A stretch of 34,071 nt of DNA, taken from Sphingobacteriia bacterium. GTDB lineage: Bacteria > Bacteroidota > Bacteroidia > UBA7662. The position numbers were made by a program, and so were the translations under genes. Position 1 is the stretch's first letter. Each line of letters begins with the position of its first letter. This document shows, in pieces, positions 13,919-18,156 of the stretch. Below the pieces are notes generated by a model. The model had not been told where the DNA came from, did no database searches, and saw only the letters and a program-made list of their open reading frames with translations. The DNA lies in NCBI GenBank assembly GCA_009927485.1, contig RFMW01000189.1, forward strand, positions 1-34,071. The letters are read 5' to 3'.

Positions 13919-15114
13919 TGAACGATGAAATTGGTTTTGACCGCTTTGGCCTGCATCCGGATGTGCTGGACGGCTTGGTAGCTATGGGTTTTCGAAAGCC
14001 CAGTCCTGTGCAGGAGCAGGCGATCCCCTTAATCCTGGACGGTCGTGACCTCATCGCCTGCGCTCAGACCGGGACGGGGAAAACGGCGGCCTTTGTCTTG
14101 CCGCTGATTGATCATCTCATCGATTTGGACGATAGGCATTTGAGCGCTCTGATTTTGACCCCAACCAGGGAATTGGCCTTGCAGATTGACCAGCAAATTG
14201 AAGGTTTATCGTATTACAGTCCGATTTCTTCCATTCCCATATACGGAGGCGGTGACGGAGCCTTATGGGATCAACAGCACAAAGCCCTTCGTCAAGGGGC
14301 GGATCTGGTCGTCGCTACCCCTGGCCGCTTGTGGTCCTTTATGGCTACCGGGAATTTTCAATTTGATCGCCTCCGTTACCTCATTTTGGACGAAGCGGAT
14401 CGTATGCTCGATATGGGTTTTCTCGAAGATATCATGCGTATTGTGGCCAGGCTTCCCAAAGAACGTCAAACCCTGATGTTCTCGGCGACGATGCCGGATC
14501 GGATCCGGCAATTGGCCGGTTCAATCTTAAAGGATCCAGCGCAGGTGAGCATCGCGGTGTCCAGACCCGCGGATAAGATTGAACAAATGGCATTGCAGGT
14601 GATGGATGATCGCAAACTGGAGGTTTTGTTGGCGTTGCTGGCTGAATTCCCTTTTCGTTCAGCGCTCATCTTTTGTTCGTCCAAAGACAAAGTCAAACAG
14701 CTGCATCAAACGCTGCGCAAATCAGGAGTCGTGAACGAGGCTTTCCATTCCGATCTGGAGCAGCAGGTGAGAGAGGAGATCATGAGGGGATTCAAGGCGG
14801 GGAGGCTTCCCGTTCTGGTCGGTACCGATGTGTTATCCAGGGGAATCGACGTGGACAATATAGATTTGGTCATTAATTACGATGTGCCACCGGATCCAGA
14901 AGATTATGTTCATCGGATTGGTCGTACCGGGAGGGCAGAACGCAACGGACGTTCCATTACCATGGTCAATCCCATGGATCTTCGCCGATGGAAGCGTATC
15001 GAAGAGCTTGTGGGACGCGCTCTCCCTTGGACCGAAAGACCCTTGTCCGGGTGGATTGGTCCTCCACAACAGAAATCAAGCCGGCAACGCGCTCCAAAAA
15101 GAAAGAAAAAATAG
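13918..15114 (+). CDS. DEAD-box ATP-dependent RNA helicase (RhlE-like)
   Basis: A 398-aa protein starting at the ATG that overlaps the selD stop by one base; an upstream start at 13888 would lie inside selD. Motifs in order are the Q motif (GFRKPSPVQEQAIP), I AQTGTGKT (about 49-56), Ia PTRELALQ, II DEAD in LILDEADRMLDMGF, III SAT, V GTDVLSRGIDV and VI HRIGRTGR, then a short basic tail ending PKRKKK. It unwinds short RNA duplexes, usually in ribosome assembly or mRNA decay. Being the third gene of a selenium-tRNA operon is unusual and may only reflect co-transcription. Confidence 0.96.
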   Translation: MNDEIGFDRFGLHPDVLDGLVAMGFRKPSPVQEQAIPLILDGRDLIACAQTGTGKTAAFVLPLIDHLIDLDDRHLSALILTPTRELALQIDQQIEGLSYYSPISSIPIYGGGDGALWDQQHKALRQGADLVVATPGRLWSFMATGNFQFDRLRYLILDEADRMLDMGFLEDIMRIVARLPKERQTLMFSATMPDRIRQLAGSILKDPAQVSIAVSRPADKIEQMALQVMDDRKLEVLLALLAEFPFRSALIFCSSKDKVKQLHQTLRKSGVVNEAFHSDLEQQVREEIMRGFKAGRLPVLVGTDVLSRGIDVDNIDLVINYDVPPDPEDYVHRIGRTGRAERNGRSITMVNPMDLRRWKRIEELVGRALPWTERPLSGWIGPPQQKSSRQRAPKRKKK

Positions 15115-15178
15115 GGGTTCCATTTCGAATAGCCATTATTTATAATAGCTGTTTGGCCTGCAGAAACTCTCCATGATT

Positions 15179-15210
15179 TTTGTTCAATTTGGGCAATGAA
15201 TTTATATTTG
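15179..15210 (+). promoter_or_regulatory. Bacteroidota-type promoter of the caspase locus
   Basis: TTTG (15179-15182), a 20-base spacer, then TATATTTG (15203-15210) match the TTTG / TAnnTTTG consensus exactly. The start site should fall near 15216, leaving a 12-base leader to the ATG at 15229. This is the best promoter match in the window. Confidence 0.72.
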
Positions 15211-15228
15211 TAACGTAACTTAGAACGG

Positions 15229-17403
15229 ATGACGCACTGTTTCAATTACTTTGACAAATACCCTCTCAAAGGCATGGGTTTAGTTCATTCCAAGTTTTTG
15301 GTATTATGGGCATTTGGCTTTTTTTTGCAGCCTTGGAATTTATGGGTTTGGGCTAGTAAACCCGATCAATGTTCCATAAATACTTTTTCGGTTTCGCCAA
15401 GCGATTCAAGCATGGGTAATTCGAAATTTCGCTCATCGGCCGTTTTTATTCAAAAAACAAATCCAAACCTCCCATTACCAAAGGGTGAGCCTCAGATTAG
15501 CACCCAATCGACCCCATCATTGGGGGTAAAGGGAGAACAGGCTATGGAGGGTCAGAAGAAAGGTAAGGTTGAATGTCCGGATAATTTAGAAGAAAAGTCC
15601 ACACCATCAGGACTTAAAAGAACCCCAGGGTCACCTTCATTAAAGATAATTAGTGTTATTCTCAAAGATGAAAATGACGATGGTATTTTAAGTGCTTTGG
15701 AAAAAGCGGAAATTGTTTTTGAGATTCAAAACAAGGGCAATGAAAACGCCTACCGGGTTTATCCAAAGGTTATTCCGACAGGGATTGTAAAATATTTGAA
15801 CATCGAAAATGTGGATGATTCAAGACACCAAATCGGAATAAACTATATTCCTTCTCTTGCGCCTGATGCCAAGGCCCAACTTAGAATCAGTATTGTAGGC
15901 CTTAACACCCTTGGTGTATTTAAGGCGAATATGGCCTTTGTGATTGTAGAATGTAACGAGAAAAACAATTCAAGCCCATTTTTAATTGAATTCTCAACAG
16001 ACACCCTTCGTGAACCACTTTTGGTTTATGATTCCTTGGTTTTGGCGAAAACCAGTGATAATTTCATTTACCGAGAAAAACCAGTTACAGTCTCATCCAA
16101 GATAAGTAATAAAAATAACGGGCAAGCATGGGGCATCAACCCCCATTTGCTTTTCAACGAAAAGGAAAAACAATACATTTCTCTGCTAATTGATAGCACT
16201 GCAAATGCAGGTTTTCAATTCCTTGGCCCCCAAGAAAGCAGGATTTTCACCAAAATGTTTTTGGTTTCGGAGGCCTATCCTTTTGACTCTTTGACTTTTG
16301 ATTTTTGTATTTCGCACAACTCCTCAGATGCGCCGTTGTGTCGAAGCTTGACCATAAATGTCAAGTCTGTCGAGGTAGTCAAGCCCAGTTCAACGATGAC
16401 AGCTGACGACCTTGAACAACCAATGAATTTGGCGGATAGTGTTTGGATAACAGATAGCCTGCAATTGCCTTCCCGCACGATTAACGCGCAATCTATTGTT
16501 TCAAATTCGTTAAATGATCAGAGTTCTTCAACGCCTCCAAGCAGTTTATCAGACCCGGCTTTGACACTTAGACCCCTTCAGAGCCAACTTCGATATTCGG
16601 ATGTTGATACCGGAATTCCATTTCGTGTTGGTGAGGGTAGGCCCTATAATTATGCTTTAATTATTGGAAATGAAGATTATGCTTCTTTTCAATCGGATGT
16701 TAGTGCCGAATCAAATGTACATTTTGCTATCCATGACGCCGAAGTATTTAAAGAATATTGCCATCGTACTTTCCAAGTCCCTGCGGAAAACATTTTTTAC
16801 TATACCAATGCGACTGCTGGAATCATGAGACAAGCCGTCAATAAAATAAGCCGTCTTATCGAAGCAGAGAAAGGTCAGGCCAATGTATTTGTTTATTACT
16901 CAGGTCATGGCTTGCCTTCAGAAACCACCAAAAAGCCATATTTGATGCCTGTTGACATATCAGGGTCTAATGTTGAAGAGGGGTTAGCGTTGGATTGGTT
17001 CTACGAGAAACTCACCAAATTCCCCACTCAAAGGGTATTAGTCTTTTTGGACGCTTGCTTCAGCGGGGGATCACGAAGTGATCAATTGTTAGCCTTGAGG
17101 GGTGTAAGAATAGTGCCTGAAGAGACAAATCTACAGGGCAATCTGGTTGTCTTGAGTTCCAGTAGCGCGGAACAATCTTCTTTGGTTTGGAAGGATAAAC
17201 AACATGGGTTGTTCACCTACTACCTACTCAAAAAGTTAAAAGCAACCGAGGGAGATGTGAAGATTCCTGAATTACTTGATTATTTAGAGCGAGAGGTGAA
17301 TCTCCAAGCCATTAAAAAATTCAACAAAGTTCAAACCCCCAAAATGAGTTTCTCTCCTTCGATTAGTACAGAGAAATTATACCAATGGAAAGTATATGAA
17401 TAA
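15229..17403 (+). CDS. Exported caspase-like (peptidase C14) protein with beta-rich N-terminal region
   Basis: The frame gives 724 aa. An internal ATG at 15274 gives 709 aa and a cleaner signal peptide (MGLVHSKFLVLW..., site after VWA), so export is likely. Residues are numbered here from 15229. Residues 45-136 are Ser/Pro-rich linker. Residues 137-370 look like tandem beta-sandwich (CARDB/NEW3-like) sequence, beginning with an EF-hand-like loop D147-E158 (DENDDGILSALE). Residues 380-470 are a second Ser/Asn-rich linker. Residues 473 to about 700 are the caspase fold: YALIIGNEDY strand, His560 in YYSGHGLP and Cys610 in FLDACFSGGS form the catalytic dyad. Proteases of this fold usually cleave after Arg, Lys or Asp. 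It overlaps the next gene by 8 bases. The DNA is AT-rich compared with its neighbours. Confidence 0.9.
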   Translation: MTHCFNYFDKYPLKGMGLVHSKFLVLWAFGFFLQPWNLWVWASKPDQCSINTFSVSPSDSSMGNSKFRSSAVFIQKTNPNLPLPKGEPQISTQSTPSLGVKGEQAMEGQKKGKVECPDNLEEKSTPSGLKRTPGSPSLKIISVILKDENDDGILSALEKAEIVFEIQNKGNENAYRVYPKVIPTGIVKYLNIENVDDSRHQIGINYIPSLAPDAKAQLRISIVGLNTLGVFKANMAFVIVECNEKNNSSPFLIEFSTDTLREPLLVYDSLVLAKTSDNFIYREKPVTVSSKISNKNNGQAWGINPHLLFNEKEKQYISLLIDSTANAGFQFLGPQESRIFTKMFLVSEAYPFDSLTFDFCISHNSSDAPLCRSLTINVKSVEVVKPSSTMTADDLEQPMNLADSVWITDSLQLPSRTINAQSIVSNSLNDQSSSTPPSSLSDPALTLRPLQSQLRYSDVDTGIPFRVGEGRPYNYALIIGNEDYASFQSDVSAESNVHFAIHDAEVFKEYCHRTFQVPAENIFYYTNATAGIMRQAVNKISRLIEAEKGQANVFVYYSGHGLPSETTKKPYLMPVDISGSNVEEGLALDWFYEKLTKFPTQRVLVFLDACFSGGSRSDQLLALRGVRIVPEETNLQGNLVVLSSSSAEQSSLVWKDKQHGLFTYYLLKKLKATEGDVKIPELLDYLEREVNLQAIKKFNKVQTPKMSFSPSISTEKLYQWKVYE

Positions 17404-18154
17404 GATCAGGTTTGTTTTATTGCTAATTTGCTTTGTTGGGTTTTGTGGAAATTCTGCATTAGCCCAATCTTTCAAGAATGTCTCTCTGGTTGTTGAAAAC
17501 TCCAAGGTTATTGTGTATTATGACCTAGTGGATACAGGCTCACCTTTGGAGGGTAGTTTCTACACCATCAAAGCCACTTTTATCAGTGATAACAAAGGAG
17601 CAATGAGTCCGTCAGCTTTGACTGGCGATTTGACCAATGTTTCAGCGGGTGTCAATAAAACAATCGTTTGGAGTGATTCTGCCCTAATTGCACAGTTACA
17701 AGGCAATCTTTCTGTTGAACTGGAGTACACCCTCTTTAGAAAAAATTTATTAACATCAACGAAGATTGATAAACCCAAAAAGAAACCCTCAAAAAATAAT
17801 ACGATACATTATTTTAAGAACTTTCCCATTCAAGGTACCTCTTTGCAAGACACTGTTTTTAGTGGTATTTCAGTTGACGGCTTCACCTCATCCTATTTTT
17901 CCTTAGGTATTAGATTTTTGCCCGAATCTGATAATGCTGTTTTGCTAGGCGGAAAATTATACCTTTTGGGCAAAAAAGAGACCGCCCTGAAGTGTTATTT
18001 AGGGGGCGGTTTTGGGTCTGGGATTTTAACTTGGAAGACAGTCTCTTATGTGAATACCGGGTTAAATATTTCTATCGGCCCAATCTCTTTGCTAGGGGAG
18101 TATTTTCTTCTACCAACACAATTTGTGGTGGTTGGTGCTGGTTTTAATTTTTAA
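17396..18154 (+). CDS. Secreted beta-rich protein, probably outer membrane, partner of the caspase-like protein
   Basis: I do not recognise a named family for the whole 252-aa protein. A clear signal peptide (hydrophobic VLLLICFVGF, site after ALA) precedes SFKNVSLVVENSKVIVYY. Residues about 24-115 resemble a repeat-like beta domain frequent in Bacteroidota secreted proteins, ending in LTGDLTNVSAG-NKTIVW. A Lys-rich hinge (about 122-135) follows. The last 110 residues alternate Gly and aromatic or aliphatic positions and end in aromatic F-N-F, as outer-membrane barrels do. It overlaps the protease by 8 bases and shares its AT-rich composition, so it is a co-translated partner. It ends 2 bases before the nrdA stop. 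Confidence 0.8.
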   Translation: MNKIRFVLLLICFVGFCGNSALAQSFKNVSLVVENSKVIVYYDLVDTGSPLEGSFYTIKATFISDNKGAMSPSALTGDLTNVSAGVNKTIVWSDSALIAQLQGNLSVELEYTLFRKNLLTSTKIDKPKKKPSKNNTIHYFKNFPIQGTSLQDTVFSGISVDGFTSSYFSLGIRFLPESDNAVLLGGKLYLLGKKETALKCYLGGGFGSGILTWKTVSYVNTGLNISIGPISLLGEYFLLPTQFVVVGAGFNF

Positions 18155-18156
18155 AC

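What the first reader, a model, noticed from the sequence alone, without database searches (positions are those of the whole stretch)
15179..18154. Two-gene exported caspase-like protease module with its own promoter
A C14 protease with an intact His-Cys dyad, a probable signal peptide and a long beta-rich stalk is translationally coupled (8-base overlap) to a secreted protein that looks like an outer-membrane beta protein. It has the best Bacteroidota promoter in the window. Known bacterial caspase-like systems in defence are mostly cytoplasmic with sensor partners; this one appears envelope-located. A surface proteolytic or self-processing device, or a cell-death or antagonism effector, is possible. 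Function is inference.
Basis: partly seen in the sequence, partly recalled or inferred. Interest (0 to 1): 0.72.

Follow-up and report, generated by a model that had tools for sequence, protein, structure and literature searches.

The report
Acquired envelope caspase-and-adaptor gene pair
A bacterium has picked up a two-gene cassette that probably puts a caspase-like protein-cutting enzyme into its cell envelope together with a dedicated adaptor protein; the same enzyme-adaptor pairing recurs across the Bacteroidota, and I found no published description of it.

Summary
Window 15229-17403 encodes a C14 caspase with an intact His-Cys dyad, a probable signal peptide and two Ig-like (CARDB-type) stalk domains. 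It overlaps by 8 bases a secreted protein at 17396-18154.

(1) The pair is a horizontally acquired cassette. In all 8 same-genus genomes the flanking DEAD-box helicase and nrdA are direct neighbours, and 15064-18155 is 39.8% GC against 52-53% in the flanks.

(2) The pairing is conserved. The conserved part of the partner is not its barrel-like end but an N-terminal FN3-like domain (here 'YDL domain'). It is adjacent to or fused with 27 of 38 related caspases. In a 247-genome sample, 11 of 19 copies (large M28-type ORFs set aside) are next to or fused with a caspase.

(3) The partner's C-terminus is variable: FISUMP, FGE, DUF5683, TonB_C or OM-beta-like.

Both S1-type aspartates are invariant (43/43), and a basic inter-subunit loop is nearly so. 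This predicts an Arg/Lys-specific, self-processing protease.

Best explanation: an envelope protease docked by a constant adaptor onto variable anchors, sensors or substrates. Its layout resembles EACC1 two-gene systems, but it is not a member. Whether the role is conflict, cell death or envelope processing is not shown.

The parts
15064..18155 (.). Acquired cassette: low-GC segment that replaces the 3' tail of the helicase gene and the helicase-nrdA spacer found in same-genus genomes
   Evidence: Empty sites in G001-G008; boundaries by blastn against L159/L160 with flanks 95.8% and 93.4% identical; GC 0.398 against 0.517/0.527, GC3 0.37-0.39 against 0.45-0.68 in other genes
15179..15210 (+). 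Bacteroidota-type promoter match TTTG-N20-TATATTTG
   Evidence: only exact match in the window; 0.9 expected by chance; 18 bases upstream of ATG 15229
15229..17403 (+). Exported CARDB-type caspase (C14); alternative start at 15274
15274..15360 (+). Probable signal peptide or N-terminal hydrophobic segment of the caspase
   Evidence: Hydropathy peak; homologues carry signal peptides; no SignalP run
15637..16365 (+). Two Ig-like (CARDB-type) stalk domains
   Evidence: AlphaFold2 model, block pLDDT mostly 80-94; CARDB in 27/43 relatives but below threshold in the window protein itself
16597..17400 (+). SDVDxxIP motif and caspase p20/p10 catalytic domain
   Evidence: Pfam C14; Foldseek best match MALT1 paracaspase E 1.8e-10, then metacaspase-9
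16906..16908 (+). Catalytic His (H545 from M15274; H560 from M15229)
   Evidence: Invariant 43/43
17056..17058 (+). Catalytic Cys (C595; C610 from M15229)
   Evidence: Invariant 43/43
17098..17109 (+). Inter-subunit loop with conserved basic residues R609 and R612, candidate self-processing site (inference)
   Evidence: K/R in 42/43 and 41/43 relatives; residues 605-609 are the low-confidence stretch within the catalytic domain
17396..18154 (+). Secreted partner protein; start overlaps the caspase stop by 8 bases
   Evidence: no Pfam, NCBIfam or PADLOC match
17396..17464 (+). Partner signal peptide, Q-rule cleavage ALA|Q24
   Evidence: Sequence; Q24 invariant in A2; Q-rule PMC5837995
17465..17740 (+). 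Partner N-terminal FN3/Ig-like 'YDL' domain, the conserved partner module
   Evidence: Model pLDDT mostly 79-97; family alignment A2; caspase-linked
17741..17809 (+). Basic, disordered linker, possible cleavage region (inference)
   Evidence: 31% K/R against 8.8% in the mature protein; low pLDDT; linkers are mildly enriched across relatives, P 0.009
17810..18151 (+). C-terminal beta-rich region, OM-protein-like ending GAGFNF
   Evidence: Six predicted strands at low confidence; no convincing homologue in 395 genomes

Best explanation
The cassette is a self-contained envelope protease module. The caspase is exported (strong by homology, plausible by its own sequence) and carries an Ig-like stalk with a C14 catalytic domain predicted to cut after Arg/Lys. 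It is predicted to be made as a single chain and activated by cutting itself in the conserved basic loop between its two subunits (inferred). The partner's constant FN3-like 'YDL' domain docks to the caspase (inferred from recurrent adjacency, tight coupling and natural fusions). The partner's variable C-terminus, here OM-beta-like, anchors the protease at a membrane or binds a cue (inferred). When triggered, the protease would cut the partner's basic linker and/or neighbouring envelope proteins (inferred). Shown computationally: both genes, catalytic residues, Ig-like domains, the partner's signal peptide, the conserved pairing, the fusions and the horizontal acquisition. Not shown: location in the cell, activity, binding, trigger, substrates and biological role. 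Among roles I favour an inducible conflict or cell-death function over routine processing, because the module is patchy, mobile and has a constant-plus-variable design, but only weakly.
For: Dyad H545/C595 and the two S1-type aspartates D488 and D593 are invariant in 43/43, with basic loop residues in 42/43 and 41/43. D488 falls in the block aligned to the 'NDA' of yeast metacaspase-1. The fold is nearest to MALT1 and metacaspase-9, Foldseek E 1e-10 to 1e-9. Q-rule signal motifs are found in 37/43 caspases and 28/31 partners, chance about 20%. The YDL domain is adjacent to or fused with 27/38 CARDB-caspases against 8/58 other caspases in the same loci. In a 247-genome class sample, 11 of 19 YDL proteins (526-600-aa M28-type ORFs set aside) are next to or fused with a caspase and 3 more have one nearby. 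Fusions are seen in L069, L189 and L038. Gaps are short or overlapping, and the same 8-base overlap recurs in L062 and L097. The cassette is an insertion relative to 8 of 8 sister genomes with foreign composition.
Against: The A2 profile was built from caspase neighbours, so the association count is somewhat favoured, although the class sample tests it genome-wide. Five of 19 YDL proteins have no caspase nearby. Closest kin G009 has a caspase without a YDL neighbour, but its contig ends 217 bases beyond the match. The caspase's own signal peptide lacks the Q-rule residue. A conserved basic loop may be structural. No complex could be modelled. The partner's C-terminus has no homologue and a low-confidence model.
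Confidence: 0.5

Rival explanations
1. A secreted scavenging or envelope-maintenance protease (nutrition or processing of secreted proteins) whose partner is only a carrier or anchor; no death or conflict role.
For: Many Bacteroidota export Arg/Lys proteases; authors of PMC4933709 suggested extracellular degradation for metacaspases; YDL domains also sit on M28-type peptidases with a T9SS-like tail.
Against: Neither protein has a T9SS CTD although this genome encodes at least 25 above cut-off; patchy presence (3 of 21 genomes in the order); one C14 gene in the genome.
Confidence: 0.25
2. The two genes were inherited together but do not act together; the YDL protein is a generic secreted protein.
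For: Some YDL proteins lie away from caspases (L177-L181); the M28-linked YDL family is independent of caspases.
Against: Repeated adjacency across distant families and both strand arrangements, plus single-chain fusions.
Confidence: 0.12
3. A known-type antiphage caspase effector (as with CRISPR/CHAT, bacterial gasdermin or NLR-like systems) that happens to carry an N-terminal hydrophobic segment.
For: PADLOC 'caspase' profile hits the catalytic domain at 1.7e-12.
Against: No gasdermin, STAND, CRISPR or nucleotidyltransferase partner seen; partners and relatives are predicted exported; the neighbouring genes scanned are housekeeping genes.
Confidence: 0.08
4. The caspase is anchored in the inner membrane by an uncleaved N-terminal helix rather than released; the partner is periplasmic or OM-bound and bridges the envelope.
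For: Window caspase has a hydrophobic N-terminus but no Q-rule cleavage site.
Against: A V-W-A|S site fits the -3/-1 rule; most homologues have clear cleavable or lipoprotein-like signals.
Confidence: 0.05

Closest known systems
EACC1-caspase two-gene conflict systems (Kaur et al. 2020, PMC7159879; NCBIfam NF047832)
   Same: Two adjacent genes, a caspase plus a constant partner domain, membrane-associated, with a highly variable C-terminal module and proposed auto-proteolytic activation
   Different: There the constant partner is a TM-helix domain and the variable part is fused to the caspase; mainly actinobacteria. Here the constant partner is a secreted FN3-like domain and the variable part is on the partner. 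NF047832 scores 59 bits, cut-off 140
Bacterial orthocaspases/metacaspases (Asplund-Samuelsson 2012, PMC3501461), including caspase-FGE fusions
   Same: C14 catalytic core with dyad and basic P1 preference predicted; FGE-type domains linked to caspases
   Different: Here FGE/FISUMP sits on a separate secreted protein joined through the YDL domain; CARDB stalk; exported
MALT1 paracaspase
   Same: Ig-like domains preceding a caspase core; best fold match; Arg specificity predicted here too
   Different: Cytosolic signalling scaffold protease of animals, death-domain partnered (from knowledge); sequence similarity barely detectable
Gingipains and PorU (C25) of Bacteroidota
   Same: Caspase-fold proteases acting outside the cytoplasm, Arg/Lys-specific or sortase-like (from knowledge)
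   Different: Different family (C25) and T9SS export with CTD, which this protein lacks; no C25 profile hit

Membership tests
Peptidase C14 (caspase) family | Pfam PF00656 above cut-off and His-Cys dyad | tested here: met
   70.6 bits against cut-off 21.4; dyad invariant 43/43
Orthocaspase/metacaspase type (basic P1) | Two acidic S1 residues (the Asp of the NDA block, and Asp two before the catalytic Cys) | tested here: met
   D488 and D593 invariant; D488 block aligned to metacaspase-1; their S1 role is taken from knowledge of metacaspase structures
Orthocaspase/metacaspase type (basic P1) | Proteolysis after Arg/Lys | not testable with these tools
   Needs enzyme assay
EACC1-caspase system | NCBIfam NF047832 caspase above cut-off | tested here: not met
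   59.1 bits, cut-off 140
EACC1-caspase system | Partner with EACC1 TM domain | tested here: not met
   Partner is signal peptide plus FN3-like domain; no EACC1 match
Known antiphage caspase systems (PADLOC) | Caspase together with a known system partner | tested here: not met
   Caspase profile only; the partner has no PADLOC hit
T9SS cargo | C-terminal sorting domain (PF18962 or similar) | tested here: not met
   No hit in either protein although the genome has many
Outer-membrane beta-barrel protein (partner) | Membrane beta-barrel with OM beta-signal | tested here: inconclusive
   Ends VVGAGFNF, which fits xxGxxFxF except for the polar first residue; low-confidence strands; alternation P about 0.08

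The most novel reading that the evidence does not exclude
A widespread Bacteroidota envelope conflict or cell-death system: an exported, self-activating caspase, a constant FN3-like adaptor domain and interchangeable sensor/anchor tails (C-type-lectin-fold FGE/FISUMP, TM or OM modules), i.e. an extracytoplasmic counterpart of cytoplasmic bacterial caspase systems, spreading as small cassettes.
Probability: 0.25. Interest if true: 0.82.

Novelty: new variant of a known kind. Interest (0 to 1): 0.58.

Why it matters
Bacterial caspase-like enzymes have been studied mostly as cytoplasmic effectors. A conserved, mobile, exported caspase with a dedicated adaptor and swappable tails would extend caspase-type control to the bacterial envelope. 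It also offers a compact two-gene case in which the adaptor, zymogen loop and substrate ideas can each be tested with single mutants. The YDL domain gives a handle for finding and sorting these systems, since no Pfam or NCBIfam model covers it.

Tried and rejected
Known defence system: the PADLOC hit covers only the catalytic domain and there are no partner genes. EACC1 family: below cut-off. T9SS cargo: no CTD. Phage origin: no match in phage records; plasmid hits are weak and catalytic-domain only. DUF4384 partner elsewhere in this genome: none found. Homologues of the partner's C-terminus: only chance-level hits in 395 genomes. Partner fold search with the full model: no significant match, only weak FN3/PapD-like hits. 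Cleavage at SDVDxxIP: position 446 is basic in 30/43 relatives but Thr in the window, so it is not proposed as a processing site here. YDL-M28 secreted peptidases: a separate YDL family unlinked to caspases. Internal repeats or insertion-sequence ends at the cassette edges: nothing convincing.

Full report
WHAT IS THERE. The window contains two overlapping plus-strand genes: 15229-17403 (724 aa, or 709 aa from ATG 15274) and 17396-18154 (252 aa), overlapping by 8 bases. The first matches Peptidase_C14 at 2e-19 over residues 475-708. The second matches no Pfam, NCBIfam or PADLOC family. The genome is a 1.94 Mb draft assembly with one C14 gene.

CASPASE ANATOMY. An alignment of 43 relatives (A5) shows His545, Cys595, Asp488 and Asp593 (numbering from M15274) invariant. 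The loop after the catalytic Cys carries Arg/Lys at 609 (42/43) and at 612 (41/43). AlphaFold2 gives two Ig-like domains (about 122-243 and 250-364), a disordered linker and a caspase core. 27 of 43 relatives match CARDB. Foldseek finds MALT1 paracaspase and metacaspase-9 as the nearest solved folds. From knowledge of metacaspase and paracaspase S1 pockets, the two aspartates predict cutting after Arg/Lys. The position of the basic loop matches the inter-subunit processing site of caspases. Both are inferences.

EXPORT. The partner has a signal peptide ending ALA|Q, as expected under the Bacteroidetes Q-rule (PMC5837995). The caspase has a hydrophobic N-terminus without a Q-rule site. Among relatives, 37/43 caspases and 28/31 partners carry the motif, against about 20% by chance, and some others look like lipoproteins. 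Neither protein has a T9SS sorting domain, although the genome encodes at least 25 such domains above cut-off. The proteins are therefore predicted periplasmic or membrane-attached rather than T9SS cargo.

THE PARTNER. Its conserved part is an N-terminal domain with invariant Tyr, Gly, Gly and Trp (A2), called 'YDL' here after its YYDL-like strand. It models as an Ig/FN3 sandwich at high confidence. A basic, low-confidence linker follows (31% K/R against 8.8% overall). The C-terminal part is beta-rich at low confidence, ends in GAGFNF, and has no convincing homologue in 395 genomes. Relatives place quite different modules here: Fib_succ_major in 9 of 31, DUF5683 in 6, FGE-sulfatase in 5, TonB_C in 1. 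By eye, G047, G122, L043 and L062 also have beta-rich, OM-like tails.

CONSERVED PAIRING. Among 80 named Bacteroidota loci plus the related whole genomes, 27 of 38 caspases that cover the CARDB region have a YDL gene within two genes or fused, against 8 of 58 other caspases. Three fusions are robust (L069, L189, L038). In a class-wide sample of 247 genomes there were 42 YDL hits. Setting aside 23 in ORFs of 526-600 aa (M28-peptidase type in the two that I read), 11 of 19 are adjacent to or fused with a caspase, 3 more have one within several genes, and 5 have none nearby. The A2 profile was built from caspase neighbours, which favours the count, but by my estimate (about one or two caspases among some 3000 genes per genome) random adjacency would be near 0.1%. 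Other recurrent neighbours are DUF4384/FlgT_N-like proteins and a family with the motif WYVAPGALPMDKQ.

HORIZONTAL ACQUISITION. In all eight same-genus genomes the DEAD-box helicase and nrdA are direct neighbours. Against the two closest, window 15064-18155 replaces the helicase 3' tail and the spacer, with flanks 95.8% and about 93.4% identical. GC is 39.8% inside against 51.7% and 52.7% outside. The catalytic-domain tree does not group the window with its same-family or same-order homologues, though support is weak. Only 3 of 21 genomes in the order have this caspase.

PROMOTER. TTTG-N20-TATATTTG at 15179-15210 is unique in the window but 0.9 are expected by chance. It is suggestive only by position.

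MECHANISM. I propose that the YDL domain docks the caspase, that the caspase self-activates in its basic loop, and that it then cuts the partner linker or envelope proteins, with the variable tail giving anchoring or sensing. Docking, activation, substrates and trigger are all inferred.

COMPARISON. The closest described layout is the EACC1-caspase two-gene conflict system (PMC7159879), which also pairs a constant component, a caspase and a variable module near the membrane. Membership was tested and not met. Caspase-FGE fusions are known (PMC3501461). I found no paper describing the YDL-caspase pairing in the searched library, which omits most subscription journals.

VERDICT. A real, conserved and mobile gene pair, best read as an envelope caspase module: a new variant of a known kind, with biological role open.

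Noticed in passing
window 15064-15114: The DEAD-box helicase ORF takes its last codons from the acquired segment, yet the tail stays basic (KRKKK) as in sister genomes. This may point to recombination inside the helicase gene.
   Followed up: partly
window 15440-15560: The caspase N-terminal region carries an extra disordered stretch of about 70 aa (NPNLPLPKGEP...TPSLGVKGEQ) absent from relatives. It resembles translated short interspersed repeats.
   Followed up: partly
L145 220-1782; L143 214-1830: A separate family has the same YDL domain fused to an M28-like secreted peptidase with a T9SS-type tail, in many genomes and unlinked to caspases.
   Followed up: partly
L083 6927-8567, L096 6979-8620, L116 6453-8071: Recurrent upstream pair in caspase operons: a WYVAPGALPMDKQ-motif protein followed by a FlgT_N/DUF4384-like protein. 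A larger envelope system is possible.
   Followed up: partly
window 16597-16620 (residues 442-449 from M15274): A motif S-D-V-D-x-x-I-P just before the caspase core is nearly invariant in relatives (D445 and P449 43/43). Its role is unknown.
   Followed up: no
L178 4866-5870 and L185 4490-5395: One genome (G122) holds two YDL proteins, one OM-like next to a caspase and one FGE-type with no caspase nearby.
   Followed up: no
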